Source: Phytophthora sp. 'mugwort' (lineage: Eukaryota > Oomycota > Peronosporomycetes > Peronosporales > Peronosporaceae). Taken from it: a DNA stretch of 64,000 bases. Shown one piece after another: positions 2,105-61,009 of this stretch. How positions within the stretch are numbered: the first letter of the stretch is position 1; each line of letters begins with the position of its first letter. The notes under the pieces were generated by a model. It saw only the letters and a program-made list of their open reading frames with translations. It had not been told where the DNA came from and did not search any database. The stretch is from NCBI GenBank assembly GCA_033558025.1, contig JAUCEF010000018.1:4340001-4404000 (forward strand), written 5' to 3'. Made by a program: the position numbers and the translations under genes.

Positions 2105-2300
2105 GTCTCCTTGCTATGCAGTTTCCTCGTGATTGATGAACTTACTCTTGCTGCCACAGCGAAGCGCAACTATACAGCACCGGTGCATTTCGTGCAAGTC
2201 AAACAATTGCATTTCCATCTTGTCATAAATCAGACTGAGGTGCTCTGCCTTGGCGCTTGTGTACAAAGTCGATGCGCAAAGGGCCAATAACGGTGATCCC
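2105..2300 (-). pseudogene. SET-domain relic 1 (E(z)-type)
   Basis: Minus-strand translation contains IYDKMEMQLFDLH followed by ALRCGSKSKFINHEE. It corresponds to the stretch of E(z)/EZH2 SET domains running from the Y-D-K-Y block through F-N-L-N to the N-K-x-R-F-x-N-H-S motif, the cofactor-binding site. Sequence upstream (AreaI/NEFVYEY block) and downstream (FDYxY block) is not present, so this is a short internal fragment. An in-frame stop follows at 2114. Confidence 0.7.
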
Positions 2301-22257: not shown

Positions 22258-22345
22258 GCTCGAGGGGGCACCATCCATGTTTTCACGCTGTAGAGGCCGC
22301 AAAAGGTAGCACAAGTGTCTTAAGTTTACGTGCAGGTCAATTGAG

Positions 22346-28300: not shown

Positions 28301-31300
28301 TTGTCCATGAACGAGTCATTATACGAGTTAATCGGCCAGCTCAGCGACAGTGGTGGCCCACTGATCCAGCTCGCTCTTGATGCTGAGATAGCCAGCCATT
28401 CAAGTGCTCAATGCCACGCGGTGTCGGTGCTGCGCCGTATCACGGGCCTGGATGTGAATCGAGTGGCGATGGTGGAACTACATCGTGAAGCTCTCACGGC
28501 TGCTTTGTTGGTGTGTGCACGACACACGGAGCTGTTGGAGAACCAGCGTGAATCAGCAGCGTGTCTGTGCAATTTGAGTCTGTCTCAAAGCAACAAGATC
28601 GTCTTCGCGAGTTCACCGGCGCTCTTCCAGCAGCTCTTTTTACTCTGTTCCTCTCCTGACATTGAAGTCGCACGCCAGGCGTGTGGAGCGGCGGCCAACG
28701 TCGCGGAAAATATACGTACACACGACTATATGATTGATGTCGAGGCGGTGCATGTAGGCGTCAAGGCCATGCGAAGTCGACATTTGCCAGTCTATCGTGA
28801 AGCCTCGAGACTAGTTGCTAACCTCATGAGCACGCCCGAGTTCCATGCAGTCTTTCTTAACGAGGAAGGACTTGGTGCGGTAGCTCGAGTCGCCAAGATT
28901 GAAGACCACGAGTGTCAGTACAATGCGGCGCTAGCGCTGCACAAGCTTTCAAGCAATTTTGAGACGCATGGAGCGATGCTTGGGAGCGGAGCTGTCCAGA
29001 CGCTGCATTTATTACTGGGAGCTCCTGGACTGGACGTGCAGCGTCAAGCTGCGGCGGCACTCAAGACTTTGACAACTAAGAAGGAGAATAAACCGACACT
29101 TGCTGAAGACGGCGGCACGATGCTGGCTTTCATTTCGCTGCTACGAAGTGCTGACGCGACACTCCAAGCCATGGGAGCTGCTGGCGTGCGGCACCTGTCA
29201 CTGTATGCCCCGACCAAGACTCAATTCGTACAGGAAGGAGGTCTCCCACCTCTGTTTAGCTGCTGTACAGTCGACGACGACGATGTAAGACTCCAATGTG
29301 CTGGAGCATTGGCCACATTGAGTGAGAACGCACTGAACCAAGTGCAAATGGTGCGTGAAGGAGTCTTCCCAGCGCTTCTGGAGCTCACGAAAGCCAGCAA
29401 TCACTGCGAGATCGCGCGTCATACCAGTCGCACGTTTGCCAATTTATCCAGCAATCCAGAAAACCACCTCGGAGTGTTTTCACGCCATGAATACCACGCC
29501 GTCTTCACGCTCGCACAGAGCACTGAAGAGCTGTGCGGCCGTGACGCAGCCATGTGTCTGGGCAATCTGGCCGTCACGTCACACAACCAGTTTGAAATCT
29601 CTGAGCTTGGCGGCCTCGCGCCGCTCTCGACGCTTTTAACGAGCGACTTTGCGTCGACGCGGCAGTTTGCAGCTCGAGCTTTCTATCGTCTCAGCGCCCA
29701 CGTCGACAACCAGCATCGGATCGTGGATGCTGGCGCGTTACCGGCGCTTGTAGCTCGACTGAACGAGGTCGAACACGAAGAAATCCAACGCTGTGCAGCC
29801 ATGGCCGTCTGTAACTTGTCCAGCAATTCCAGCAACGAACAGAAGATCATGAAGACCGGCGGCATGCGGGCGCTGGTAGCGCTATTACGGTCTCCAAGCC
29901 TCGAGTGTGCAAAGTACGCAGCGATGGCATTATGCAACCTGACAGCCAACCCGGCCAATCAACTTCACGTCGTGGTGCAAGACAATGGTCTTGATCCGTT
30001 AGTGGACCTGGCAGCGTCTTCCGAGCCAGAATGCGCGCGATATGCCAGCATGACACTGGCCAATGTCTCGGCACATCGACAGAATCGTCTCGTAGTAGTG
30101 GAACGTCAGGCGCTTCGTCCATTGCGGACGTTGTGCTTGTCACCGAATCGAGAGTGTCAACGCAGTGCCGCCTTAGCGCTCTACAATGTGTCGTGTGCTC
30201 AAGTGAACCAGCTTCAGCTCGTCGAAGCAGGGATTGAGACGGCACTGGTAAGACTCGCGGGAGCTAAGGACGGCGACTGTAAGCGCTACGCCACAATGAC
30301 ATTGTGTAACTTGGCAGCAAACAGCGAGACCCGTTCGGCTGCGGCCCGTGGTGGCGGGCTGCAAGCTCTGTTGCTTGCTGCGAAAGACCCGGCTGACTCG
30401 AGTGTACGTCGATACGCGTGCATTGCGCTGTGTAACTTGGCGTGTGACCCGCTTCTTCAGATTCAAGTGCTTGTTCATGGCGGGCTCGCGCCAATTCTTG
30501 CACTCACAGACGAAGACGTCGAGAGTCAACGTTTTGCTATGATGGCGCTGTCGAATCTGGCGGCAAATGAGACCAACCATGACCACATGATTGGCCGTGG
30601 CGTGTTGAAAGTTGCGCTGCGACTGGGCCAGTCACAGGACGAAGACGTGCGACTGTATGCGGCCTTTGCATTGGCAAACTTTGCAGGGAATACAGCTCAA
30701 TGTGCTGCGATAGGAGACGAAGGCGGTATTGCGGCGCTCATCATGTTGGCGCATACAGAAGACGCGAACTCCCACACACTGGCGGTCTCAGCTCTTCGAC
30801 GTCTGTGTCAATTCTCTTCGCAGAATCGTGGCCGGATTGTACGTGGTGGAGGTTTATCTCCACTTGCGGTTGCTGGCATGTCGGAAGAGCTGGAGACACA
30901 GCGCGAAGTCGCTGCTACGTATTGCAACCTCTCATTAAGCGACGAGTACAAGGTGGAGATCGTCCAGCAAGGAGCGCTTCGACCGCTTATTAAATTGGCT
31001 CAGTCATCTGATCTTGAAGTGGCTCGACAAGCTTGTGGCGCGCTCGCGAACCTCGCTGAACACGTCGAGACTCACGCTCAGTTCGTAGCGGAACGTGGTG
31101 GCAACTTCCTTATCGCTCTTATGAAGCACCGACACGAAGAAATCCACCGAGAAGCGTCCCGTACGATCGCTAATTTGCTCTCAAGCTTCGAGCATCACAC
31201 GGAGATGATCGCTGAAGGGCTCCCAGGTCTCGTTCATCTGGGCTTATCACTGGATCCCGAGTGTCAGTACAATGCGGCACTAGCACTGCGTAAACTCGCC

Positions 31301-33493
31301 CCGAACTTTGCGAGCCATCGCGGTCTCGTGTATGAAGGTGGACTGAAGACTTTGTTCTTCTTACTGCAAGCTAAAGAGTTGAATACGCGTCGTCAGAGCG
31401 TACTCGCGCTACGGGATTTAGCAGCAAACAGCGAATTCCGACGCAAATATGTGGAAGAAGGTGGTCTCCACTCGCTCTTGACGTTTCTACGGGATGTGGA
31501 CGCGTCGCTGCAAGCTCCAGCGGTTGCAGCCTTGCGCCATTTGACATCGTCGGCTTCGCATCCAGAGATTAAGCCACAAGTCGTCGAGGAAGGTGCGCTG
31601 CGTCCAATACTGCGCTGTCTGAGCACGAACCCGGGGGCTAAAGGTCTGCGAGATCTGCAATGCCAGTGTGCGGGACTGGTAGCGAATTTATCTGAGCACA
31701 CGATCAATCAGCAGAAGATTGTGGCTGAAGGGTTGACGAGTGCGTTGGTGGCACTGACAAAGGCTGCTCCAGAGTGTGCCGAGATTCTACAAGATGTCAG
31801 TCGCGCGTTGGCGAATCTATGCTCGAACGAGGCCAACCACCAAGCCGTATACAAGCAAGGCGCTCTATTGTGTCTCATCCAGCTCACCGAGTCGACAGAC
31901 GACGTCACGCAGCGGTATGCAGCAATGGGCTTGCGTTTCTTGTCAGCCAACCCCACGATTCGAGTCCATATTGTTCAAGAATCGCTGCTACAGCCATTCA
32001 TCAAGCTCGCACAAAGTTCTCTGCTCGACTATCAACGCACGGCAGCCGCAGCTTTCTCGAGTTTCTCTCTGAACGAAGAAAACAAGCTCAAACTGGTACG
32101 AGACGGTGGCTTGGCTCAGATTCTGCGTTGCTGCGCCTTCGACGACTTGGAAGTTAAACGAGATTGTGTCTTTGCGCTCGCGAACATAGCCGACTCGCTG
32201 GAGCATCAGCTCGATGTGGTGCGTCAAGATGCCATCTCCGTCATGATCAATGTCGGTGTTCACGATGACGCTCGTGTCCAACGTGATTGTGCGCGAGTGT
32301 TCGCTTCATTGTCGATAACAAACTCAATCAAGCCTCAACTCGTCCATCAAGGAGCTCTCCCCTCTCTCTTCCGTCTCACGCGATCTCTGGACGTAGCGAC
32401 GCAGCAGTTTGCGACACTGGCGATCTGTAACGTGGCATCTTCCAGTGAGGACAAGGTTTTTATCGTTGAACAAGGCGCGATTCGTCCTCTGACGCACCTC
32501 ATTCGGTTCCCAGATGCACAGATCCAGCGTTATGCGGCACTGGCACTCGCAGCGTTGGCACTTGGTGGCATGGGCAATAACAAGCTGCGGTTGGTCGAAC
32601 AAGGCGCTGTCCCGCCGCTAATTGACCTGCTGCGATACCCTAGTGCAGACGTCCAACTCTGTGGCTGTTTGGCGTTAAACGCGTTGGTTCTTGGGAGACA
32701 GAACGTGCCGAAAGTTTCAGTCATGCAGAGTGAAGGACTTCTACCACTACTCGCTTTATTAGCCTCGACAGATGAAGAATGTGTGCGTTGTGCGCTTTAC
32801 TGTCTCGGCTCATTGGGTGAAAGCAAAGAGGTTTTACACAAACTGGTGGAGCTGGGCACACTTGTCCACGTCGTAGCGTTGACCAAATGTATCGACACGG
32901 AGACGTTGAGGAATTGCGGCTACATTTTCGCACTGGTAAGCGAGCAACAGACGGATTTCCACGACGAGTTGTACCGTGAAGGAGGTTTGGATGCTGCCAT
33001 TGCGTTGGCTTGCGTTGAAGACATGGAGTGTCAAGAGTACGCGACGTTTACACTGGCTCATCTCGCGTCCAATAGAGAATACCAAGTCCGTCTGGTTGAA
33101 CGTGGCGCGTTGCGGCCACTTATCGCTATGATGTCGGTACATGCAGAACCGCGACATTATGCAGGACTTGCACTGCTGAAACTGGCCGATAACTATGAAA
33201 ACCACTTGCGGATCGCAGAAGAAGGAGGGATCCAGGCTTTGTTACGTATTGCACGTGCTCGATCCACGGACGAGGAGCTTCAGTACAAGGCTTCACTCAG
33301 TCTGGGACAACTTGCTAGTAATGCGACTCGTTCATTGCCCAATCATAGTACTTTGAAAACTGGTGATGGAGTCATTGGCACGAGCGTTAACAAGATGGCT
33401 CAGATCACGCAGAATGTGGCGGCCAAGAAAGCTGCCAAGGACAAGACTACACAGTATCTTGACGACAAAATCGTCCGCGAGTCGAGCAGATAG
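22346..33493 (+). CDS. Giant armadillo-repeat protein (3,715 residues, intronless)
   Basis: One uninterrupted 11.1-kb frame. Nearly the whole protein is tandem armadillo repeats of about 41-42 residues, some 85-90 units by length. Each follows the pattern 'G-x-L-x-P-L-x-x-L-a-x-s-x-d-x-e-x-Q-R-x-A-a-x-A-L-x-N-L-s-x-n-x-x-N-x-x-x-i-v-e', for example GALPPLVKFL, EGGLEPLVLLLQS, YAALALANLS and NKVKILQEGG. Only the first about 15 and last about 55 residues (VNKMAQITQNVAAKKAAKDKTT) fall outside the array. Repeat style is closest to Vac8/ARMC-type proteins, but there is no N-terminal Met-Gly acylation signal as in Vac8 and no other domain. Such superhelices bind extended peptides; possible roles are a vacuolar, cytoskeletal or flagellar scaffold, none provable here. 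Absence of introns and stops over 11 kb shows strong constraint. Third-position GC is high, like neighbouring genes. Confidence 0.93.
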   Translation: MSKVLEQLIARGRRERKPTEQRDVAFSLAEISTNAELHEKMVSKGVVKALLTLILQSSDAEALRLACLCLANVASCPASRVRIVEEGALPPLVKFLKDDESENDVVAKQYVAMMIGNLAAEPENHEEIVQLGAIEPLVKLLDPEMVHSGVYCAFALANLSVNNEYRPLIVDEGAIPRLIALACCKELSAQRQSLACLRGVCISPANRILVVKEGVLDPLVLMARSDEPDIQREVAAAFCALSATVENKVEISDRALLTIISMSLSGDPSVEEYACSTIANLTELHELHDKLLRENGLASIMALAVARDLNTRSEACRCLANLTANEDVQPALMKEGVLQPLAGALVLDHHVCQRYAALALANLSTTASYQVQIVGLGTITPLIALAQAFDRELEARRYAVLAIANLAAMKANHPALVEAGCLLSLFSLASTADALSQYYVAFALANFASNQSNHTRMVEEGGLQPIITLASSEDTDVHHQAVAALRGLGVNEANKVKILQEGGLEPLVLLLQSDDLEILREACAALCNLSVSEETKYEMAKSGAVAPLVAHAQSEDMELARQSCATLANLAEVEENQEKICVDGGVPPLIAMMRSQFVEVQREAGRALGNLSAFRLNHDDIIEHGGHQLLISYLLSPDMASQRVGALGICNLATNSAIRELLMESGAMEPLMSLARSEDVELEIQRFAILAIANLATCVENHRAIVEEGSLPLLISLSSAPDQEVRQYAAFALVKVALNADLRKQITEEGGLEPVLFLARTQSSDLQADVLPAICTLSFADANKSDICKCGGLPPILSALKSDDVGVQRQALCAVANLAENVENQSHLVADGAVPPVVDALQHGGIIAQREAARALGNLSANCDFADVILRQGAAPPLIQLLGSEVVDCQRMAAMALCNLGTNVNNQPKLLAQGVLPPILARIEEALDPRSLADNDVIRYCLLVLANLAVSPSTHEELLAKALTFLAAYAKHRDVKCRQFAIFALGNLCSNPNNIERIVAANCLQPIIAFAFPGDANVQFQAIAGLRGLSVNQVVRLQIVRLGVLEPLILAASSESIEVQREVAATLSNLSLSEENKITMARGGCLPALLALASSRDAYRERQAVCALANLAEMIEGHTHKKMLEEGVLTPLYALATCADLEVKRQVSRCLALFAAKPSSQATLLRSNALRYIGAFAQETEDVACRRFGTLAIGNLAVEPKNHRDLFDQGAVTALMTVDKATDLETRRALAFALNNLAGNESNNAQISKLGVLRTVIALLHDADQDTHLQACFALRRMVVEAKNRTQAVSFGALSPLFKLALSESVEVQREVCAALRNLSLSEDNKVVIVLNGGLAPLLTLVHSADGEAAHQACGVLANLAEVVENQGRMVKDGVLQHIKFVLRTKSVDVQREALRTIANMSAEYAYTAELVSSGGLTPLMTALNAPDFLSQRYAAMGIANLSTNEENVTKMVQDALVPTLVALANGSLNGDVETQRYAVFTLTNVASVRATQSALVDAGVLSLFAELLQHPDMTLRNGAAFGIANFTAFSENHSTLLELGDVLFEALLRLLESHDTKCQYRAVCALRGLCVNELARRELVRRGVLRPLLALTKSEDMDVQQEVLACLCNLSLSGCVGAYPDVFIAACEMQSLVAFLCSADATYRLFGAVTLGNLAAKTEYQDELIAAGAVSPLVEVANSVDLETHRCIAFALCNLAANPTRRQMVETMGGLPPIIQLACSDDVSDQKTAIAALRGLSNRPETRVHIVVEGGLEPLVLGARSRDVQLHREVAMTTYNLSLAEKNKLAIAVSPLMSALITLMLSNDEDTAAFACASVANMAENSDTHSAIAEQRGLRFFLELEAQGASARVAREAVKCVANLSSNYALHDLLLADGCHEFLVQALQHNDSKTRLFAVIGLGNLVSNPQNHSRVLREKVVLPLIELAVDVAHSEPRQFALLALGCIFTTQTNHDAFVENGVLPALIAALDTANDMETRFYAAFALAKLSMNESLYELIGQLSDSGGPLIQLALDAEIASHSSAQCHAVSVLRRITGLDVNRVAMVELHREALTAALLVCARHTELLENQRESAACLCNLSLSQSNKIVFASSPALFQQLFLLCSSPDIEVARQACGAAANVAENIRTHDYMIDVEAVHVGVKAMRSRHLPVYREASRLVANLMSTPEFHAVFLNEEGLGAVARVAKIEDHECQYNAALALHKLSSNFETHGAMLGSGAVQTLHLLLGAPGLDVQRQAAAALKTLTTKKENKPTLAEDGGTMLAFISLLRSADATLQAMGAAGVRHLSLYAPTKTQFVQEGGLPPLFSCCTVDDDDVRLQCAGALATLSENALNQVQMVREGVFPALLELTKASNHCEIARHTSRTFANLSSNPENHLGVFSRHEYHAVFTLAQSTEELCGRDAAMCLGNLAVTSHNQFEISELGGLAPLSTLLTSDFASTRQFAARAFYRLSAHVDNQHRIVDAGALPALVARLNEVEHEEIQRCAAMAVCNLSSNSSNEQKIMKTGGMRALVALLRSPSLECAKYAAMALCNLTANPANQLHVVVQDNGLDPLVDLAASSEPECARYASMTLANVSAHRQNRLVVVERQALRPLRTLCLSPNRECQRSAALALYNVSCAQVNQLQLVEAGIETALVRLAGAKDGDCKRYATMTLCNLAANSETRSAAARGGGLQALLLAAKDPADSSVRRYACIALCNLACDPLLQIQVLVHGGLAPILALTDEDVESQRFAMMALSNLAANETNHDHMIGRGVLKVALRLGQSQDEDVRLYAAFALANFAGNTAQCAAIGDEGGIAALIMLAHTEDANSHTLAVSALRRLCQFSSQNRGRIVRGGGLSPLAVAGMSEELETQREVAATYCNLSLSDEYKVEIVQQGALRPLIKLAQSSDLEVARQACGALANLAEHVETHAQFVAERGGNFLIALMKHRHEEIHREASRTIANLLSSFEHHTEMIAEGLPGLVHLGLSLDPECQYNAALALRKLAPNFASHRGLVYEGGLKTLFFLLQAKELNTRRQSVLALRDLAANSEFRRKYVEEGGLHSLLTFLRDVDASLQAPAVAALRHLTSSASHPEIKPQVVEEGALRPILRCLSTNPGAKGLRDLQCQCAGLVANLSEHTINQQKIVAEGLTSALVALTKAAPECAEILQDVSRALANLCSNEANHQAVYKQGALLCLIQLTESTDDVTQRYAAMGLRFLSANPTIRVHIVQESLLQPFIKLAQSSLLDYQRTAAAAFSSFSLNEENKLKLVRDGGLAQILRCCAFDDLEVKRDCVFALANIADSLEHQLDVVRQDAISVMINVGVHDDARVQRDCARVFASLSITNSIKPQLVHQGALPSLFRLTRSLDVATQQFATLAICNVASSSEDKVFIVEQGAIRPLTHLIRFPDAQIQRYAALALAALALGGMGNNKLRLVEQGAVPPLIDLLRYPSADVQLCGCLALNALVLGRQNVPKVSVMQSEGLLPLLALLASTDEECVRCALYCLGSLGESKEVLHKLVELGTLVHVVALTKCIDTETLRNCGYIFALVSEQQTDFHDELYREGGLDAAIALACVEDMECQEYATFTLAHLASNREYQVRLVERGALRPLIAMMSVHAEPRHYAGLALLKLADNYENHLRIAEEGGIQALLRIARARSTDEELQYKASLSLGQLASNATRSLPNHSTLKTGDGVIGTSVNKMAQITQNVAAKKAAKDKTTQYLDDKIVRESSR

Positions 33494-33954: not shown

Positions 33955-34335
33955 GTGATACCATGGCTACATGTACGGGATGTTTGCGAGGGAGGCTATC
34001 TTGGCGAATGAGTTCGTGTACGAGTACATTGGGGACATGTTATTCTCAAGACGAAGCGGAGCGTCGCGGTCCGATTTATGACAAGATGGAAATGAGCTAC
34101 TTGTTCGATCTGAATGAAGATGCGGTGCTGGATGCACTTCGCTATGACAACAAGAGCAGGTTCAGCAACCACGAGGGCGAGACGTCGAATTGCACGGCGA
34201 AGGCGGTGAGATGAGTGTGGTGTGCACCACATCATAGTCTGGGCGTTGCGCAATATCGCGGTCGACGAGTTGGTTTTCGACTACGGCTACAAGCAAAGTG
34301 TCAGTCCAGACTGGAGTCAGCGTCGAGGTGCCTTG
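33955..34335 (+). pseudogene. SET-domain relic 2 (best preserved E(z)-type copy)
   Basis: Translation shows an E(z)/EZH2-like SET domain almost end to end. It begins YGMFAREAILANEFVYEYIGD, then SQDEAERRGPIYDKMEMS, FDLNEDAVLDALR, NKSRFSNHEGE and NCTAKA. After a frame change come HHIIVWALRNIAVDEL and FDYGYKQSV. Landmarks conserved with E(z): S-Q-D-E-A-x-R-R-G, Y-D-K, N-K-x-R-F-x-N-H, N-C-x-A-K and F-D-Y-x-Y. The stop at 34212 plus the frameshift break it. There is no CXC (pre-SET) cysteine region upstream and no start codon context, so this is a fragment and not a gene. Confidence 0.85.
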
Positions 34336-34489
34336 AAGGATTCAATTTTAGGAACGTGCAGATCGGTCCGTATCCGTTTGACGCAAGGTCTGTTTTCTTG
34401 ATCGTGCATATGTATGTCCTCACCGTTCCGAGAGTACTGTATAGGTGCTCTGATTGGACCGATTTGAGGACGGATATCATGCCACGCTA

Positions 34490-35269: not shown

Positions 35270-36605
35270 AGAGTTCCTCATCCGTTCGTCCATCCGTCAG
35301 TCCGTCACACTTCCGTACCGCACTTCAGCTTCGCTCGGCGGCCTCCCATTGGCTTAAATTGCATTTTTGCTGCCGGGCGAAGACAGCCCCGCCGTTAATC
35401 CTTTTCGTGTCTTGCGGGACCAGAGGGCACGACTTTCTACCGAAGCCGAAGGCGTAGGTTGCTCACGTAGTATCCTAAACGGCGAGTAGTGAAGCGAGAC
35501 TCAGCGAGCGGAGCGGAGGCATTCACTACCGTAGCGAAGCGTAGGTAGCTTTCTCAGTAGTGGAGCGAGCTCTTGAGTGAGTGAAAGGGATTGGGAGTGT
35601 TGACAACACAATTTCCCTCCGTCCGTCCATCAGTCACGCCATAACGTGATTTCTAGCCGCAATCTCATTGGCTGTCGAGCGCAGCGAAGGCGACCCTCAT
35701 TCGCTAAAACCACCCACCGAAGGCGGCCACTGGTGGAAATATAAATAAAATGATTGGTTGAAATTTGAAATATATTTTTAGCCCCCATCCTTTCATTCGG
35801 CCTCTGTAGTCGAATAGATAACCCGCAGGAAAGTATCGCAAAAGTTTCTGTCTCGTTCAGAATGCTTCCATTTCACTGCATTTGCTGTTGATGCTCTATC
35901 ATCTCGTATCTGCCTGAACGTGTTCGTCCGTGCGGGAGTTTCAACGTTCTTGATGACATGCCATAGACACCACAGGTGCGGGACCGACGGGAGGGCACTC
36001 TCAAGAGCATTGATGAGAGCTAGGTCAGCATCGCTGAATATCACTTGTGGGTTCGGAATGCAGTTCTCGGACATCATCAGCACGAGTTGTTGTATGGCCC
36101 AATCATAGTCTGCTTGCTGCTCCGTTTTGATGAAAGCTTGCGCGATGTGTATAATGGCGTTGGTGCTTGTCACCTCGACGATGTTGAAAAGAGGAAGCCC
36201 GAATCGATTCGTCTTGTAAGTGCAATCAAGCGTAATTATGTCGTAATTCGCTTTGAACACAGCGATTCCTGGCCCGAAAGCAAAGAATAAGTGGCTGATT
36301 TGTTGTTGCTCGTCCGTCCGGAATTGCACGAAGTAATCCCCTTCTTGGAGCTGGCGCAGCAAATACTCCATTCTCGTAAGGCTGCCAGCTCGCTCGTTCA
36401 TTTTGCGCTGTCATTCATTGTAAACTTCTTGGCTGATGAGCGCGATCCCAGGTTGCAATAATGTCAACCGTGCCATGGTCTGAACGACCCGCGTACCGAT
36501 CTTGGCGTCCTTAGTAATTGCGTCCCGGACAAGCTGTGAGTGCGCAGCTCTGCGATGAACTGAATGAGCGGTAGGATGGGTTGATGGCATATGTGTGTGG
36601 ATCAA
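35270..36605 (-). mobile_element. Mutator-like (MULE) transposon remnant
   Basis: The minus-strand frame at 36401-35793 (202 residues) carries the MULE transposase core: IITLDCTYKTNRFGLPLFNIV with the first catalytic Asp, QVIFSDADLALINALESALP with the second, and HLWCLWHVIKN, the C/H region of the family. Frame-shifted N-terminal sequence continues to 36605 (QLVRDAITKDAKIG). The third acidic residue and C-terminal end are missing or degenerate. The GC-rich flank 35280-35720 contains many short 'gcgaagcg/gagcgag' repeats and two 'cgtccatc(c)gtcagt' blocks, typical of the non-coding ends of such elements. It is non-functional. Confidence 0.8.
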
Positions 36606-36974: not shown

Positions 36975-37235
36975 TGCCAGACTTAGTCGCGGCTGAGCTG
37001 GAGACCGAGTTGCTGGACGTGAACGACGAGATGCTGGGGACCGAGCTGCGTGAACAATGAGCTACTGGGGACCGATTAGCTGGAGGACGAGCTGCTGGAG
37101 GCCGAGCTGCTGGACCTGTCCGAGAACAACGAGCTCCTGGACGATGAGATGCTAGAGACCGAGCTGCTGAACGACGAGCTGCTGAACGACGAGCTGCTAG
37201 AGACCGAGCTGCTGGTGCTGAAGCTACTGCTGCTT
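36975..37235. repeat. Degenerate 'gagctgctg' minisatellite
   Basis: Short units built on gag-ctg-ctg-gac/aac-gac repeat with slight variation across about 260 bp, giving Leu/Glu-rich or Ser-rich frames. Low-complexity repeat; open frames over it have no evidence of being genes. Confidence 0.7.
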
Positions 37236-37619
37236 GTTTGCGGGGTAGTGGAGGGCTTCTGAGGAGAGCCGGTTAAATGGCTTGTGCTTTCCATTTTCTC
37301 TTCGCTGTTTTGGTTTATGTGCATTACACAAATACAAGGTTGCGAAGGGCATCACGTCTTCATGAGCGTTTAGGTGCCTCCTGCGAATAACAACTCCCCT
37401 GAAAAAGGGGGCTGTCATGTGTCCGTCTTTGACGAGCTGGGACTGCAGCGCGCATGGGCTCACCTACTTGGACCGAAACTAAACCCACCGCTGCGTAGAC
37501 GGTGGCGCTCGACTAGTAGTAGCAGTACCACTAACAACGATTGTAACATTCGATGCAGATTGATCGTAAACTCGTAATCGCGAACCATACGCACGACCAA
37601 GACGGGTACGGACGTAAAA

Positions 37620-37965
37620 AAAAAAAGCGATCCTTCAAGACCATTCGATGCTGACTCCAATAAGGACCGGCACTTCGCTTGTAGCCGTAGTCGAAAACCT
37701 CCACGCCAACCACAACGCCGAGAGTGCGATTTGATGCATATCTCATACGCTCACCACGCATCGCATCTTCGTTCAAACGGAACAAGTAGCTCATTTCCAT
37801 CTTGCCAAAAATCAGATCGCAGCGCTCCGCTTCGTCTTGAGAAAACATGGCGCCAGTGTACTCGTACCCACGAAATCACTCTCCGAGATGACCCTGCGCG
37901 CAAACATCCCGTAGCATGGACCGAAGTAACGCCGATGCCCAACTGTTTGTGATTGCTTCACCGAA
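37620..37965 (-). pseudogene. SET-domain relic 3, spanning the outer edge of the left palindrome arm
   Basis: Minus-strand translation gives CYGMFARRVISESDFV, FSQDEAERCDLIFGKMEMSYLFRLNEDA, then a deletion joining directly to VEVFDYGYKRSAGPYWSQHR. It therefore lacks the N-K-x-R-F-x-N-H-S cofactor site. It crosses the palindrome boundary at 37848: only its first part is copied into the right arm. Confidence 0.8.
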
Positions 37966-40514
37966 CTACAACGGCTATCAAACCCAGGTCGTATCACGTA
38001 AGTAGAACATGACAACATTGGAGAACGCATGAAGGGTCTTCTCGGCTGCTGGTATTAACTTCAGTCCATGTTCTCTACAACTGAAATGTTTGTAGCTTCA
38101 TTCTGGACACGTTCAAACTCATTTCCTTGCCTGTGTTACCCCTGCATTGAATCCCGGCCGGCTCGCGGATCGTTGGAAGCCGCCCTCTCGAATCAATACA
38201 CGTGACCTGGGATTTCAGTTGTCGACGCACAAAACCTACCGCCGATTGCTCGCGCTTAACCCCGATATAATGCATGGGCGGCAGTATTCTCAACAAGAAA
38301 TGACGGCACTTTTAGAGAATCAGACTGTCTATTTGAAGATGATTGCTTATCACCTCTTAGAATATCTGTAAGTGGAAATTGTTCCCCCTGTTTTCTACCA
38401 TGACTGGATCGTTCTCCTCCTTGCTTTCTCGGTCTGCTGGCTGGATATTTCAGGCTTGACGGGGGAACTTCACGAAGGACACGGGGGTCCATTGACCAAG
38501 CCCGGGTTTGGATTCTGAGACTGCTCATCATTCGAAGCAATCCGCTAGCAGGGGACATTTAACGCACGACCGGGTCCACGTCGGGCAGTCCTGACGTCTG
38601 ATTCTCGGGCCACATCCGACGGCACTTGACAATCCCGTTAGTTTCACGTTAAAGCAACCTTGTACAAAGCTTACCGCAACTTATCAGATCTGTGCCTTTA
38701 CATTCGACTTTCTCGCGTAATTAAACAGAAGCGAATGGACGCGGCGAGTGAGGTGATCATGCTAGCCTATAGCAGCGACGTGTCGCCCGAGAGCGAAATG
38801 GCGACGGCGTGCACAGTCCGTCGGCCGTGTGGACACGATGGAGGCGGCGCCGGCGATGGCTGCGGCTCTCGAGACGAAAGAGTCCGGCGCGAGTCGCAGC
38901 ACGACGAAGTAGAATGAGAAAAGGACGCTTCTAGCGCCGAGTCTGCTGCCTAGGAAGGCTAAGAAACTACAGACAAAACAGCACAGTGCCAAGAAGCTGC
39001 GAAAGGCCGAAGGATCAGTCAGAATACCGCACCTACACACCGAGATCGAAAGAAACAGCACGTAGCTGCCTCTTCGCGGTCTCGAACAAGGTTATGCAGC
39101 CTCAGTTCCAGCTCTGATTCCAGACCGATCTCAAGTTCTGGATATATCCGCCGCCCTCGCTTCGGTAATTCTGGCGATTCAACAGGCGATCGACACGGCA
39201 ACCATGTAGTGCGTCTTCAGGGAAAGCTGGATCAAGTGGACGATGACGCGGGCCCGCCACTTCAAGTGCTCGGCATCGGGTGGACCCTGATGCAACCTGG
39301 GGAAGTCGTAGGAATGTTGTCTTCGTCCTCATTAAGCTTTTCCGAGTCACTGTTAGTGGTCGGTCGCGCTCATCGGCACTGGCGTTCCTGTCTTCGCTGG
39401 ATCGAAGACTGGAAAGAAGCGCCTGATATTGAATGATTGTGTGCTTGGGAGAAGCGAGCCTCGCTCAGGCGTCTCTTCGTGGCGGCATCCAATGAGCGCT
39501 GAGGCAATAGGACGTCCACAATTCTCAGCGCATTCCAATAAGCAATTGACAAATAAAACGTTGGCGGCAGTCGGGGCAGGCAAACGCATGCGAGTGCTGC
39601 CTCAGATGCGACGCGAGTCTACCAGTGGCACCAGAAAGCGTGATCAGAGCCCCTGGGGAGCCGTTAACGTAGAAGGAAAAAAAAAAGAAACTGGTGAAGA
39701 ACGCTGTACGACGTCGAGATACCATGTCGAAGTCCTCGCCAGCGACGCAACACGAAACCGTGTCTCTATTGACGTCGTCATCGCCATCATCGCCAATCTC
39801 GTCCTCTTCGGCCTCATCACCGAGAGCAGTACCGGCGCAGAAAAAACATCGGTGACGACGCCTCTACGGCGTTGCAATCGATGATTCAACGTGGTGAAGG
39901 AGAGACCGAAGTGTTTGGTCGATAGCATTGCGCGCAATCTGTTTCTATCAACGCCGAAACGCCTTCGGCAAAGTAAGCTCCGTCGTGCCGTCCTCAGTGT
40001 CTTCGATATCTGCGAACGCGCTGTCTTTGTCATCACCAGCACCGTCGGTGTGTTCTCTTAATTTGACACAGATCATATGGCGCTCGATGACCTGCAGGCC
40101 CAGACACAAGTGGTTTACAGGGGTCTTTCTTCGGTCCAAGGCTACTCCGTTTGTGCGCGAGGCGATCTTGGCGAGTGATTTCGTGTTCGAGTCCACTGGC
40201 GCCGTGTTCTCGCAAGCAACAGAGCGCCACGGTCCGATTTGCGACAAGCTGGAAAGTAGCTACATGCTCGATTTAGTTTGAAGTTGCGGTGCTGGACACG
40301 CTCCGCTGTCGCAACAAGAACAAGTTTATCAGTTAGATAGCGAGACGCCGAATGAAGGTCGCGAGCGTATGTGGTGAGCACCACATCGCATTTTTGCGTT
40401 GCGCGGACGATGAGGCGTTTTTTTTTACTACGGTTACAACCGAAGTTTCGGCTCAGATCGGAGTGAACGTCGATTGGTCTGAAAGGATTCCATTTCTTGG
40501 AACCAGCATATCCA
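37848..40514. repeat. Left arm of a large inverted duplication (2,667 bp)
   Basis: Positions in this arm pair with 41149-43814 so that paired coordinates sum to 81663 across the arm. Every open frame seen here (for example 38075-38296, 39429-39884, 39928-40281) reappears with identical translation on the other strand. Differences noted only near the ends: one substitution at 40505, one at the outer edge and one 1-base indel near 37855-37860. Inner divergence starts at 40515. Confidence 0.97.
38650..40512 (+). pseudogene. SET-domain relic 4: longer decayed E(z)-like copy inside the left arm
   Basis: Plus-strand remains. The C-terminal part reads FVREAILASDFVFESTGAVFSQATERHGP, ICDKLESSYMLDL, then, in shifted frames, NEGRERMW, APHRIFALRG, YYGYNRSFGSDRSERRL. 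The sequence before it (39.4-40.1 kb; for example KRDQSPWGAVNVEGK and serine-rich tracts) and low-complexity basic segments from 38.66 kb may be the degraded N-terminal half of the same gene, but only the SET part is recognisable. Many stops and frameshifts. Confidence 0.6.
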
Positions 40515-41148
40515 GTGCGTAGCGGTTGGAAACCGAAGCCTGTCTTCTGGACATGCACGTTATTAAATGGAATCCTTCAAAGACGCTCGACAGCAGATAC
40601 ACCCCAGTCTGAACCTACGCTTCGCCGTAGTAAAAATACCCCTAGTATAACTTCTCGTCGCGCAAGTACAAGATGTTGATGTAATTACATACCACGTACT
40701 TCATCGTCTCACCATTGTTCGCCGATGGACTAACTCTAGCGATATTGCGCAATAAACCGACTGTGATGTGGTGCACAACACATACGCTTACCAACTTCGC
40801 CCGTGGCGTCTGACCCTCGTGATTGATGAACTTGCCCTTCTTTACACAGCAAACGTCGAGTGCCCTGAAAAATTCCCTATACGGAGCTGGGATATCTAGT
40901 CCTCCCCCGCCGAAACGGCGGCTTATTTTCTTGGCTTTTCATATGGTACGTGACTACATATCTAATAGCAATTACAATTATTGTTAGTAGCGCTGATGAC
41001 TGTTTTTTTGTGGCCAGATATTCCCAACCGCACAAATACACGCGAATATGTTTTTTGTTCAGTTGATCTATTCAACGGGTGGACCCGGGATGTGTCGTTC
41101 GTAATCCAACGCACGCCACGGCCATAACAGCGCAATCAAGCACCAATT
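40515..41148. other. Spacer of the inverted duplication (634 bp)
   Basis: Unpaired sequence between the two arms. Its left half carries SET relic 5; the right half (about 40900-41148) is AT-rich with nothing recognised. Confidence 0.8.
40555..40870 (-). pseudogene. SET-domain relic 5 in the palindrome spacer
   Basis: Minus-strand translation contains GKFINHEGQTPRAKLVSVCC and HHSRFIAQYR, then, further on, RRSVGSDWGVSAVERL, corresponding to the N-H motif, the strand after it and the post-FDY segment of the other relics. It lacks the N-terminal half and is interrupted by stops. Confidence 0.6.
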
Positions 41149-41150
41149 TG

Positions 41151-43013
41151 GATATGCGGGTTCCAAGAAATGGAATCCTTTCAGACCAATCGACGTTCAC
41201 TCCGATCTGAGCCGAAACTTCGGTTGTAACCGTAGTAAAAAAAAACGCCTCATCGTCCGCGCAACGCAAAAATGCGATGTGGTGCTCACCACATACGCTC
41301 GCGACCTTCATTCGGCGTCTCGCTATCTAACTGATAAACTTGTTCTTGTTGCGACAGCGGAGCGTGTCCAGCACCGCAACTTCAAACTAAATCGAGCATG
41401 TAGCTACTTTCCAGCTTGTCGCAAATCGGACCGTGGCGCTCTGTTGCTTGCGAGAACACGGCGCCAGTGGACTCGAACACGAAATCACTCGCCAAGATCG
41501 CCTCGCGCACAAACGGAGTAGCCTTGGACCGAAGAAAGACCCCTGTAAACCACTTGTGTCTGGGCCTGCAGGTCATCGAGCGCCATATGATCTGTGTCAA
41601 ATTAAGAGAACACACCGACGGTGCTGGTGATGACAAAGACAGCGCGTTCGCAGATATCGAAGACACTGAGGACGGCACGACGGAGCTTACTTTGCCGAAG
41701 GCGTTTCGGCGTTGATAGAAACAGATTGCGCGCAATGCTATCGACCAAACACTTCGGTCTCTCCTTCACCACGTTGAATCATCGATTGCAACGCCGTAGA
41801 GGCGTCGTCACCGATGTTTTTTCTGCGCCGGTACTGCTCTCGGTGATGAGGCCGAAGAGGACGAGATTGGCGATGATGGCGATGACGACGTCAATAGAGA
41901 CACGGTTTCGTGTTGCGTCGCTGGCGAGGACTTCGACATGGTATCTCGACGTCGTACAGCGTTCTTCACCAGTTTCTTTTTTTTTTCCTTCTACGTTAAC
42001 GGCTCCCCAGGGGCTCTGATCACGCTTTCTGGTGCCACTGGTAGACTCGCGTCGCATCTGAGGCAGCACTCGCATGCGTTTGCCTGCCCCGACTGCCGCC
42101 AACGTTTTATTTGTCAATTGCTTATTGGAATGCGCTGAGAATTGTGGACGTCCTATTGCCTCAGCGCTCATTGGATGCCGCCACGAAGAGACGCCTGAGC
42201 GAGGCTCGCTTCTCCCAAGCACACAATCATTCAATATCAGGCGCTTCTTTCCAGTCTTCGATCCAGCGAAGACAGGAACGCCAGTGCCGATGAGCGCGAC
42301 CGACCACTAACAGTGACTCGGAAAAGCTTAATGAGGACGAAGACAACATTCCTACGACTTCCCCAGGTTGCATCAGGGTCCACCCGATGCCGAGCACTTG
42401 AAGTGGCGGGCCCGCGTCATCGTCCACTTGATCCAGCTTTCCCTGAAGACGCACTACATGGTTGCCGTGTCGATCGCCTGTTGAATCGCCAGAATTACCG
42501 AAGCGAGGGCGGCGGATATATCCAGAACTTGAGATCGGTCTGGAATCAGAGCTGGAACTGAGGCTGCATAACCTTGTTCGAGACCGCGAAGAGGCAGCTA
42601 CGTGCTGTTTCTTTCGATCTCGGTGTGTAGGTGCGGTATTCTGACTGATCCTTCGGCCTTTCGCAGCTTCTTGGCACTGTGCTGTTTTGTCTGTAGTTTC
42701 TTAGCCTTCCTAGGCAGCAGACTCGGCGCTAGAAGCGTCCTTTTCTCATTCTACTTCGTCGTGCTGCGACTCGCGCCGGACTCTTTCGTCTCGAGAGCCG
42801 CAGCCATCGCCGGCGCCGCCTCCATCGTGTCCACACGGCCGACGGACTGTGCACGCCGTCGCCATTTCGCTCTCGGGCGACACGTCGCTGCTATAGGCTA
42901 GCATGATCACCTCACTCGCCGCGTCCATTCGCTTCTGTTTAATTACGCGAGAAAGTCGAATGTAAAGGCACAGATCTGATAAGTTGCGGTAAGCTTTGTA
43001 CAAGGTTGCTTTA
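41151..43013 (-). pseudogene. SET-domain relic 6: mirror copy of relic 4
   Basis: Identical translation to relic 4, on the minus strand, including the same stops and frameshifts (for example the frame at 41735-41382). The gene was therefore already dead when the duplication formed, or the arms have been homogenised since. Confidence 0.6.
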
Positions 43014-43734
43014 ACGTGAAACTAACGGGATTGTCAAGTGCCGTCGGATGTGGCCCGAGAATCAGACGTCAGGACTGCCCGACGTGGACCCGGTCGTGCG
43101 TTAAATGTCCCCTGCTAGCGGATTGCTTCGAATGATGAGCAGTCTCAGAATCCAAACCCGGGCTTGGTCAATGGACCCCCGTGTCCTTCGTGAAGTTCCC
43201 CCGTCAAGCCTGAAATATCCAGCCAGCAGACCGAGAAAGCAAGGAGGAGAACGATCCAGTCATGGTAGAAAACAGGGGGAACAATTTCCACTTACAGATA
43301 TTCTAAGAGGTGATAAGCAATCATCTTCAAATAGACAGTCTGATTCTCTAAAAGTGCCGTCATTTCTTGTTGAGAATACTGCCGCCCATGCATTATATCG
43401 GGGTTAAGCGCGAGCAATCGGCGGTAGGTTTTGTGCGTCGACAACTGAAATCCCAGGTCACGTGTATTGATTCGAGAGGGCGGCTTCCAACGATCCGCGA
43501 GCCGGCCGGGATTCAATGCAGGGGTAACACAGGCAAGGAAATGAGTTTGAACGTGTCCAGAATGAAGCTACAAACATTTCAGTTGTAGAGAACATGGACT
43601 GAAGTTAATACCAGCAGCCGAGAAGACCCTTCATGCGTTCTCCAATGTTGTCATGTTCTACTTACGTGATACGACCTGGGTTTGATAGCCGTTGTAGTTC
43701 GGTGAAGCAATCACAAACAGTTGGGCATCGGCGT

Positions 43735-43814
43735 TACTTCGGTCCATGCTACGGGATGTTTGCGCGCAGGGTCATCTCGGAGAGTGATTTCGTGGATACG
43801 AGTACATGGCGCCA
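43735..43814 (+). pseudogene. SET-domain relic 7: truncated mirror of relic 3
   Basis: Translation CYGMFARRVISESDFV matches the start of relic 3, then ends at the breakpoint 43814. Confidence 0.75.
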
Positions 43815-44220
43815 CGACCCACGGGACGTCGTACGTGGGCCGTCTGAAGCGGTTTCATGATTCATTGGGCTCGGTAGCCCCGCAGACCCTAGCTCTTTAA
43901 GCGAGGCTGCGACTTTTCCCTCTCCGAGTGTCCAGGTCCAGAAGCCTAGGTCCCTTGCGAGACCGCAGAATGGGTTCCATACGAAGGAACCCCGGCTGTA
44001 TACGCCGAAGAACCCGGCTGTATACGCCGAGTATGAGCCATACTGATACGGCTGGGAGTACGCAGGAGTCGCTCTCGCCTGAGGAACTGGCCACATGAGG
44101 TCCCCAAGGAGGTACATATCCCGCTGGACTCGGTCCGTGGACACCCAAAGAGCATCCAGACGTCGGAAAGCCTCGTCCACGTCATTCGTCCGATGGTCGA
44201 CCCGACCCTCAAGAGCCGAC
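43815..44220 (-). mobile_element. Gypsy gag-like segment, inverted relative to the 63-kb copy
   Basis: The minus-strand frame carries LEGRVDHRTNDVDEAFRRLDALWVS and QRDMYLLGDLMWPVPQ, about 95% identical to 63440-63832. It contains two copies of a cggctgtatacgccga unit near 43987-44030. It is followed without a gap by the pol relic at 44221. Confidence 0.8.
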
Positions 44221-46240
44221 CATCGACTTTGGCAGGTTAATGGTATATGCCGCAAAAATGCCTGGCCAGGACCGCTGATGGTCCAATGAAGCTGTGCCTC
44301 AGCTTGTTGCTCCCAACGGAACCTACCGTGGCGAGGGATAAGTTCCTAGTGTCTAGTAGGACGAATTGGCCCACTTTAAACACGTTTAAGTTTCCTCTTC
44401 CTTGTTTGTCTGAGTACTCTTTTTGTTTGTCCTGTGCCGCTGCCATGTATCACGGACACGGCTGGTTACATTCAGCCTGGTGTCTATAAAACACTCCACT
44501 TGTTTCCGCAAGGAAACCGGTCTCATGTCCGAGACCCGGGAGGAAAGCGCTTTCCGAGCCCCCCCTCTTAGAATCGAGGACGGGTGCTCTATCTCAAATT
44601 GAGCGGAAGGTAGAACACGCTATATCCGGTCGATAGTGAACCGCAATGCTGAGTGCAAACTCAACTACTGACATGCGTTCTGACCACGTGCGAGGAGACT
44701 CCGCATATATAATGTGCAGAGTACTTCAAGCAGTCGGTTAACACGCTCCGTCTGCCCATCCGTTTGAGGATGAGCAGTGGACATGTGTAGCCTCGTTCCA
44801 AGTAGCTGGAACAGCGTTCGCCAGAATGCAACGGTAAACCACGCGTCACGATCCGAGACAATTGTCTCCGGCAAAACATGACGGCAGAAAACGCCATCCA
44901 AGAACAGCTTCGCAGCCTGTTTCCCGGTCACGGCGTCTTTGACCCGAGCAAGACGCACCACCTCGCTCAGACTGCACACAAACATCAAGATGCCGGTGTT
45001 TCCGTGGCCATCGGCTAAGAGTCCAGAGATGAAGTCAAGACTCATTGAATTCCAGCAGTCCGCTGGAACGGGCAGGCTCTACAAGGGAGCTGAAGCGTGC
45101 CCGGCGGGTTTCACATGTCTTCACGTACTGTGCGACCCACTTGCAAATGTGGCCCCCCAAAGGTACTGAGAGACCGATCGGAAGGTATTCTCGCTGCCCA
45201 AGTGACCGCTGGACGGCGCGTTGTGCGCCTATAGGATGTCAAACTTGAGATCCTCCTCGCTTGAAACGACTACCCGAGGGGTTTCGTGGGGCTCCACTCG
45301 ATAGTAGAGCAGGCCATCAGCCCACTCGTATGATGGAGCCGGGTCTCTGACGTGGCGTGCCACTCGGTCTTGGCTTCCTTGCCAGCAGCCAGGAAACGCA
45401 TCAGAGGTGCCAGGTTTCGTCGCCCCGATACGCCATACGTATCTGATCGTACAGATCGGTCGTGGCACGGCTTATGTGCGCCGGCTCATAGTCCGGCCTG
45501 CGTGACAACGCATCGGCAAGCACGTTGAGCTTGCCAGGCTTGTACTTGACGCCGTAGTTACATTCCGCGAAGAAGACAGCCACCTCGCCATCCTTGGGAC
45601 AATGGGGCGAATTCGTTGCCGTCCGCAAGGATGCCGTGATCAGTGTAGATCATAAAGGGCTGGGGTCCAGGGAGGCGCACCCTGAACTTGACAAGGGCAT
45701 AGTGCATGGCAAGCAGCTCATTGTCATGAACGGGGTAATTCCGTTTGGCAGCCTTGAGCTGCCTGGACTGAATCGAGATCACTCGTTCACGTCTTGCTGC
45801 ATCGTTCTGCAGCAATGCACACCCGATTGCATAATCGGATGCATCACAGACGACGCTGAAGGGCTTTGTCTCGTCCGGCAGTGCCAGGACAAGCGCCTTC
45901 TGAAGGCTTGCCTGACATTGTCAAGGGCTTCCTGGTGCTCACGCCCCCAATGCCAGTCGTTATCCGTCTTTAGAAGATCCGACAAGGGTTTCCAGACCCG
46001 CATACCCCTCGCTGCACTTACGGAGGTAATTGGCTAAGCCCAGCCAATTGCTTAGGTCCTTCTGGGACCTTGGCGTTGAACAAGCCGAAATGGCCTTGAC
46101 CTTCTCCGGGTCGGCTGGAAAGCCGACGTTGCTTGCCGGGTTGCCTTGTGGTGTTAATGCTTTCCTTTCTTTTAGTGGCTTGCCTCTTCCTTAGCGGGAT
46201 CTTACGCGAAGAGAGTCGAAGCGATCGTCGTCCAAGCACT
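44221..46240 (-). mobile_element. Ty3/Gypsy pol relic (RT end, RNase H, integrase)
   Basis: On the minus strand, from 46240 downward: a reverse-transcriptase connection segment (near 46.0-46.13 kb), then AAKRNYPVHDNELLAMHYAL and FMIYTDH of RNase H, then YKPGKLNVLADALSRRPDYE. The integrase core at 45045-44661 has MSLDFISGL, ETIVSDRDAWF and STAHPQTDGQTERVNR (the D,D-x35-E core), and the C-terminal part at 44446-44237 has KVGQFVLLDTRNL. Several frame breaks; no protease, full RT or LTRs attached. 44221-44370 is identical to 63852-64000. Confidence 0.88.
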
Positions 46241-60397: not shown

Positions 60398-60454
60398 AAT
60401 GTGAGCGTGATACGTAACAAACACAAAGGACTTGGCAAGGGCTTTCCTTCTGCC

Positions 60455-60895
60455 CATGCTACGGGACGTTCGTGCACGAGGCTGTCTCAGCGAGTGAGTT
60501 CGTGTACGAGTACACTGGCGCCAGGTAATTTTATATACCCCACAGCACGCGCTTGGCAAGGCTTAATAGTGGAGTTTCAATTGTTCAAGACGAATCAGAG
60601 CGCAGCGATATTATTTACGACAAGATGGACATGGGCTACTTGTTTGATTTGAAAGAAGATGCGGCGCTGGCTGCGCTTCGCTGTGCCAACAAGAGCAAAT
60701 TCATTTACCATGAGGTGAGAAGCCGAATTGCGCGGCGAAGGTGATGAGCCTATGTGGTATGCACCATGTCACAATCGGGGCATTACGCGATATCGCGGTT
60801 GACGACGAATTGGGTTTCGACTACGGATACAAACGAAGTGTCGGCCTAGACTGGAGTCAGCGTCGAGCTGCCTTGAAAGATCCTTTTTAAGGAAT
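60455..60895 (+). pseudogene. SET-domain relic 8 (E(z)-type)
   Basis: Translation: CYGTFVHEAVSASEFVYEYTGA, an about 60-bp insertion, then FQDESERSDIIYDKMDMGYLFDLKEDAALAALRCANKSKF, a small frame change, PNCAAKV, MHHVTIGALRDIAVDDELGFDYGYKRSVGLDWSQRRAAL and a stop. It is the second most complete copy; the H of the N-H motif region is altered and the frame is broken near 60714. Confidence 0.85.
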
Positions 60896-61009
60896 GTGCA
60901 TATCCGGTTTATGACGCGGACACAACACATTGCGCACTGGAAGTATAAATTCCTGGGAGTATACAAACATTCAATGGAGCTCACAAATACTGGCCTGAGG
61001 GACTATTAC
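60896..61009. other. Junction between SET relic 8 and LTR
   Basis: Sequence shared in part with the downstream flank of other SET relics (gtgca(t)atcc block near 60896), then AT-rich LTR-like DNA. Confidence 0.35.

What the first reader, a model, noticed from the sequence alone, without database searches (positions are those of the whole stretch)
37848..43814. Near-perfect 2.67-kb inverted duplication that could form a long hairpin RNA
Two arms of about 2,667 bp around a 634-bp spacer are almost identical (three differences noted, all close to arm ends), although the contained sequence is full of stops. The arms are therefore either very young or kept alike by gene conversion. The right arm breaks inside a SET relic that continues intact on the left, which shows the direction of copying. 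Any transcript crossing the spacer would fold into a very long double-stranded RNA carrying E(z)-type SET sequence. Inverted-repeat loci are known sources of small RNAs in eukaryotes, and Phytophthora makes 21- and 25-nt classes; silencing of SET genes in trans is inference.
Basis: partly seen in the sequence, partly recalled or inferred. Interest (0 to 1): 0.88.

Follow-up and report, generated by a model that had tools for sequence, protein, structure and literature searches.

The report
Long inverted duplication of Polycomb-gene debris
A 2.7-kb piece of dead Polycomb-type (E(z)) gene has been copied back-to-front next to itself in a Phytophthora-like genome; it is one of at least seven such near-perfect mirror pairs there, several of which bear the mark of gene conversion, and whether this one makes silencing RNA is untested.

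Summary
Arms 37857-40514 and 41149-43806 (alignable from 37848 to 43814) enclose a 634-bp spacer. They differ by two substitutions and one 1-bp gap, all within 20 bp of an arm end. The arm holds decayed E(z)/EZH2-type sequence, lacking about 2.8 kb that the longer gene on contig C4 has. Homology to that gene runs past both borders of the left arm (strongly outside, weakly inside) and past neither border of the right arm, so the right arm is the copy.

The locus is not alone. The same genome holds at least six more inverted pairs, 97.0-99.99% identical. One is 10.6 kb long with a single difference and carries two E(z)-type genes. In the seven pairs together, substitutions are 58 times denser in the last 120 bp of arm ends than inside, as expected if gene conversion keeps arm interiors alike.

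Best reading: an inverted duplication of Polycomb-gene debris, probably made by templated repair, in a genome where such pairs recur. Hairpin small RNAs are plausible (Argonaute genes are present; Phytophthora inverted repeats are published small-RNA sources) but untested. Silencing of E(z) in trans has a weak basis: 18 of 2,647 21-mers match exactly.

The parts
37857..40514 (+). Left arm, the parental copy (alignable from 37848)
   Evidence: homology to the C4 E(z) copies runs across 37848 and, more weakly, across 40514
41149..43806 (-). Right arm, inverted copy of the left arm (alignable to 43814)
   Evidence: homology to the C4 E(z) copies passes neither of its borders
40515..41148 (.). Spacer of 634 bp; apart from E(z)/SET-like stretches and one weak place on C18 it has no match elsewhere in the genome
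38793..40557 (+). E(z)-type gene relic: N-terminal part joined at 40103/40104 to the SET part, about 2.8 kb of the C4 gene missing between them; stops inside
37624..37957 (-). SET (E(z)-type) relic crossing the outer border of the left arm
40546..40850 (-). SET (E(z)-type) relic in the spacer, tail to tail with the relic of the left arm
41169..42870 (-). Mirror copy of the E(z) relic in the right arm
43694..43794 (+). Mirror copy of the outer SET relic, cut off at the arm end
43814..44220 (.). 407-bp retroelement segment next to the right arm, flipped relative to the same element elsewhere
   Evidence: 38 of 38 other scored copies that have both pieces carry it the other way round; 1 of 39 other scored copies has no match to it; 40 of 276 candidates were scored
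44221..45784 (-). Fragment of an LTR retrotransposon, Ty3-like by eye (pol remains), 97.9% identical to the copy at 63852-65434
   Evidence: no family scan was run on it

Best explanation
This is a local inverted segmental duplication of dead E(z)-type gene sequence. Shown: the left arm is the source; the right arm is an inverted copy that ends abruptly at 41149 and 43806-43814; and it abuts a 407-bp retroelement piece that is itself flipped. Inferred: one repair event with template switching laid down the flipped 407-bp piece and 2,658 bp of the left arm. Shown for the genome: several comparable inverted pairs are nearly identical inside and diverged at the arm ends, as expected from gene conversion between arms. 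Inferred for this locus: it is young, or held alike by the same process, or both. No function is shown. If it is transcribed across the spacer, the RNA would fold into a hairpin of about 2.66 kb that the organism's RNA-silencing proteins could cut.
For: Direction of copying. Identity and end-located differences. Flipped segment. Other inverted pairs: C4 716708-727348/741138-751778 (10,641 bp, 1 difference); C6 2740041-2743495/2744622-2748086 (99.3%, spacer about 1.1 kb); C11 (at least 3,207 bp, 99.84%); C16 (2.6 kb, 97.0%); C2 (at least 3.45 kb, 99.28%) and C9 (at least 4.79 kb, 99.54%). Substitutions in the terminal 120 columns of known arm ends: 57 in 1,320; interior: 22 in 29,557. The relic is old, 73-79% identical to the C4 genes, while the arm interiors do not differ. 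Three Piwi-domain genes in the genome.
Against: The window pair has only two substitutions, so its own conversion signal is thin (P 0.008), and it lacks the roughly 100-bp diverged margin of C6, C16, C2 and C9. C4 has one substitution (P 0.023) and C11 is not significant (P 0.14). Arm ends were set by local alignment, and for C11, C2 and C9 one end was not fetched. No reads were available to prove the assembly. The template-switch step rests on anatomy only. Inner-border homology of the left arm is weak (63-67% over 43 columns).
Confidence: 0.75

Rival explanations
1. Hairpin small-RNA locus: the inverted pair is transcribed and cut into 21- or 25-nt RNAs, acting mainly on itself and neighbouring relics.
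For: Phytophthora inverted repeats are reported as strong small-RNA sources, and 6 SET genes in P. infestans yield mainly 24-30-nt RNAs (PMC3804510). Three Piwi-domain genes are in this genome. Identical arms would give a near-perfect duplex.
Against: No RNA data. No Rfam family at gathering score in 37000-45000. No promoter or transcript was shown or sought. Identity of the arms is explained by recent copying or conversion without any function.
Confidence: 0.35
2. E(z) regulator in trans: small RNAs from the arm target the E(z)-type genes of contig C4.
For: 18 of 2,647 arm 21-mers match the C4 717/751-kb genes exactly, longest match 31 bp; 495 match with up to 3 mismatches against 1 for one shuffled target. 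The C4 copies look constrained (dN/dS 0.21 in the SET frame).
Against: Only 0.7% of 21-mers match exactly, and 5 of 2,647 for the third copy. Such leftover matches are expected from any decayed paralogue.
Confidence: 0.05
3. Assembly artefact: the right arm was never there or is a misplaced copy.
For: Not excluded by reads. Many inverted pairs in one assembly could point to a systematic fault.
Against: The arms have a 634-bp spacer and different outer flanks, unlike fold-back reads, which as I recall join the arms directly. Other pairs have real differences (15 to 25 substitutions in C6, C16, C2 and C9), and identities range from 97.0 to 99.99%.
Confidence: 0.1
4. A transposon with very long terminal inverted repeats (fold-back type).
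For: Mirror arms around a short spacer; MULE transposase remains lie at 35793-36410.
Against: The left arm has no outer border of its own: E(z) homology continues across it. No other place in the genome matched the arm above 80% identity over more than 150 bp.
Confidence: 0.04

Closest known systems
Long palindromes or inverted repeats homogenised by gene conversion (for example the primate Y palindromes; recalled, not looked up)
   Same: Near-identical arms; differences concentrated at arm ends in the pooled set of seven pairs
   Different: Here the arms are dead gene sequence in an oomycete-like genome, and the window pair lacks a broad diverged margin
Phytophthora small-RNA-producing inverted repeats such as the 714-nt pin-IR2758 of P. 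infestans (PMC3804510, passages and one section read)
   Same: Inverted repeat able to form a hairpin RNA, same or close genus
   Different: Each arm is almost four times as long as that repeat; no small RNAs have been shown here
Inverted duplication by fork-stalling or microhomology template switching (recalled, not looked up)
   Same: Abrupt ends, short shared sequence at the outer junction, a flipped neighbour segment
   Different: No parental strain to compare, so the event is inferred

Membership tests
Gene-converted inverted repeat | Arms nearly identical | tested here: met
   2 substitutions and 1 gap in 2,667 columns
Gene-converted inverted repeat | Differences concentrated at arm ends | tested here: inconclusive
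   2 of 2 substitutions terminal at this locus (P 0.008), too few alone; clear in C6, C16, C2 and C9
Gene-converted inverted repeat | Pair older than its arm divergence suggests | not testable with these tools
   Needs other strains or species; the tool states that this genome has no relatives held
Small-RNA-producing inverted repeat | Inverted arms able to form a duplex | tested here: met
Small-RNA-producing inverted repeat | Silencing machinery in the genome | tested here: met
   3 Piwi-domain genes, E 4e-90 or better; Dicer and RdRP were not searched
Small-RNA-producing inverted repeat | Dense 21- or 25-nt reads from the arms | not testable with these tools
E(z)/EZH2 gene relic | Similarity to an E(z)-type gene with CXC and SET parts, frame broken | tested here: met
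   Homology to C4 frames, the last of which carries PF00856 and PF18264; the middle frame has Ezh2_MCSS only below its cut-off and the first frame no Pfam match; stops in the relic
Fold-back or long-TIR transposon | Discrete element borders on both sides | tested here: not met
   Homology crosses the outer border of the left arm (65 of 76 columns) and, more weakly, the inner one

The most novel reading that the evidence does not exclude
Conversion-maintained inverted duplications act in this genome as standing double-stranded RNA sources. E(z)-derived hairpins such as this one, together with the 10.6-kb inverted E(z) gene pair, would form a self-regulating loop in which debris of the Polycomb methyltransferase tunes its own intact genes.
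Probability: 0.05. Interest if true: 0.85.

Novelty: new member of a known kind. Interest (0 to 1): 0.45.

Why it matters
The locus points to near-perfect inverted duplications as a recurrent feature of this genome. They cover retroelements, SET sequences and two E(z)-type genes within a 10.6-kb pair that has one difference. If gene conversion holds such pairs alike, their age cannot be read from arm identity, and mutations in one copy can be erased or spread. Such pairs are also natural candidates for hairpin small RNAs in a genus where inverted repeats are known small-RNA sources. Both points can be tested with long reads, small-RNA libraries and several strains.

Tried and rejected
The arm as a dispersed transposon: rejected. 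A SET-specific cause of inverted duplication: rejected, because MULE and Ty3-like sequences show such pairs too.

Orientation bias, read off the tables by eye. Strict rule: same contig, within 50 kb, same bit score and same query range. It gave 7 inverted pairs (SET: C4 and C6; MULE: C16 1668/1672; Ty3-like: C11, C9, C2 1905/1920, C2 2359/2398) and 0 direct. Six of the 7 were confirmed by sequence; C2 2359/2398 was not fetched. Looser rule (within 2 bits, ranges may differ): it adds 2 inverted (C16 2546/2547, Ty3-like; C8 1691/1701, C48) and 3 direct pairs (kinase C11 3538/3541 and C1 4602/4630; hAT C11 1997/2016), none of these five checked by sequence. The lists were capped: SET 129 of 129 candidates scored, kinase 126 of 501, MFS 8 of 169, Ty3-like 40 of 276, MULE 150 of 591, C48 150 of 194, hAT 150 of 279, and two window stretches 9 of 9 and 36 of 36. 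The Ty3-like list was chosen from this window. Direct near-identical repeats also exist in stretches that I read: a 746-bp tandem array at C4 705-712 kb and 44221-45784 / 63852-65434 at 97.9%. So the bias is a lead, not a result.

Literature: no listed title concerned long gene-converted inverted repeats in Phytophthora or oomycetes (listings; papers not read), SET expansion (1 paper listed) or oomycete EZH2 copies. One search listed papers on mitotic gene conversion in Phytophthora; of these only passages of PMC4773254 were read. Rfam scan of 37000-45000: 0 matches at gathering score. Species not identified.

Full report
What is there. The window lies on contig C18 (4340001-4404000) of an 86.26-Mb assembly of 154 contigs. 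A window protein (delta-aminolevulinic acid dehydratase) is most like Phytophthora relatives: 90% to P. megakarya and P. pseudosyringae over 88% of its length, 91% to P. fragariaefolia over 70%, 94% to a P. cinnamomi fragment over 53% (the 8,000 candidates sharing most words were scored). The SET frame of the C4 gene is 88% identical to a P. nicotianae protein over 57%, and two of its 25 hits bear the name EZH2, both Phytophthora. I call the genome Phytophthora-like; the species is unknown.

The inverted duplication is real. Arms 37848-40514 and 43814-41149 align over 2,667 columns with two substitutions and one 1-bp gap, at 37867, 40505 and 37856. The inner 2,637 bp are identical. The gap sits in TGGCGCCA, an 8-bp palindrome at the junction, so 37857 and 43806 are the better borders, as the repeat finder gave.

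Content. tblastn with the frames of the C4 E(z)-type gene finds in each arm an N-terminal part and a SET part with stops. By DNA, 39317-40103 lies next to 40104-40495 where the C4 gene has about 2.8 kb more. A second SET relic on the other strand crosses the outer border of the left arm and is about 85% identical to C4; a third lies in the spacer. Another is at 33962-34347. The area is a pile of E(z) relics in both orientations.

Direction. Beyond the outer border of the left arm, 65 of 76 columns match one C4 copy and 66 of 76 the other; beyond its inner border 27 of 43 and 29 of 43. The inner extension is weak but its score was reached by 1 of 500 and 0 of 500 shuffled flanks. Beyond both borders of the right arm nothing aligns.

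The flank of the right arm. From 43814 lies a 407-bp retroelement piece, followed at 44221 by another part of the same element. In 38 of 38 other scored copies that have both pieces, the 407-bp piece has the opposite orientation; 1 of 39 other scored copies has no match to it, and 40 of 276 candidates were scored. So the right arm and a flipped 407-bp segment share a border. I infer one complex repair event with template switches; this is not proved.

Relatives in the genome. Contig C4 has a 10,641-bp inverted pair (716708-727348 / 741138-751778) with one difference, 52 bp from the outer end and outside the SET frame, carrying two E(z)-type genes; a third copy at 1050102-1054779 is about 90% identical. 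The last of the three overlapping frames carries SET and pre-SET CXC domains; the middle one has Ezh2_MCSS below its cut-off and the first has no Pfam match. Whether the frames are joined by introns or broken by frameshifts was not tested. Between the first and third copies dN/dS (Nei-Gojobori, own script) is 0.21 for the SET frame, 0.31 for the middle and 0.48 for the first frame, which suggests constraint. Further inverted pairs were met while following matches: C6 (SET and MULE), C11, C16 (MULE), C2 and C9.

Gene conversion. In the seven pairs I counted substitutions within 120 alignment columns of arm ends that lay inside the fetched DNA (both ends for the window, C4, C6 and C16; inner only for C11; outer only for C2 and C9). 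Terminal: 57 in 1,320; interior: 22 in 29,557, a 58-fold excess. Terminal/all by pair: window 2/2, C4 1/1, C6 10/16, C16 20/25, C11 1/4, C2 14/15, C9 9/16. C6, C16, C2 and C9 are each clear (P 1.4e-8 or less). The window (P 0.008) and C4 (P 0.023) have too few changes to stand alone and lack a broad diverged margin; C11 is not significant (P 0.14). Identical interiors with diverged ends are what conversion between arms leaves. One recent conversion of older, diverged inverted copies would look the same. For the window pair, youth alone remains possible. Gene conversion is discussed as known in P. sojae and other oomycetes in PMC4773254 (passages read).

Are such pairs mostly inverted? Under a strict rule (same contig, within 50 kb, same score and query range), the lists show 7 inverted and 0 direct pairs, read by eye; six of the seven were checked by sequence. 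A two-sided sign test would give about 0.016 (my arithmetic). Under a looser rule (scores within 2 bits) it is 9 inverted and 3 direct, the extra five unchecked. Most lists were capped, the richest list was chosen from this window, and direct near-identical repeats exist at C4 705-712 kb and between 44221-45784 and 63852-65434. I treat this as a lead.

Small RNA. Fahlgren et al. (PMC3804510; abstract, passages and the section on small-RNA populations read) report that inverted and tandem repeats have the highest small-RNA output per Mbp in P. infestans, that inverted repeats favour 18-23 nt, and that 6 SET-domain genes give mainly 24-30-nt RNAs. In P. sojae, small RNA of Avr3a is suggested to be necessary but not sufficient for silencing (PMC4773254, passages read). 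The present genome has 3 Piwi-domain genes. This makes a hairpin source plausible; nothing here shows transcription. For action in trans on E(z), 18 of 2,647 arm 21-mers match the C4 pair exactly and 5 the third copy; with up to 3 mismatches 495 and 434, against 1 and 0 for one shuffled target each. That is the residue of common descent and a weak basis for regulation.

Verdict. A sound observation with a partly right interpretation: an inverted segmental duplication of dead E(z) sequence, a member of a set of such pairs in this genome, several of them marked by gene conversion. The small-RNA role is open and the E(z)-target idea is unlikely.

Noticed in passing
contig C4 716708-727348 / 741138-751778 (L013, L014, L015, L016): A 10.6-kb inverted pair with one difference carries two E(z)-type genes; a third copy about 90% identical lies at 1050102-1054779.
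   Followed up: partly
window 43814-44220: A 407-bp retroelement segment is flipped relative to 38 of 38 other scored copies of the element that have both pieces.
   Followed up: partly
contig C4 705001-712015 (L012): Tandem array of a 746-bp unit, copies 99.3-99.7% identical, ending at 712015 beside a SET relic at 712008-712235; its start was not fetched.
   Followed up: no
whole genome: 101 SET-domain matches at E 0.001 or better, a good part of them with stops inside; other genomes of the group were not compared.
   Followed up: no
window 2125-2248 and 60418-60908: Further E(z)/SET-like relics in the window, far from the inverted repeat.
   Followed up: no
window 22310-33493: One stop-free frame of 3,727 residues on the + strand, armadillo-like by eye; no family scan was run.
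   Followed up: no
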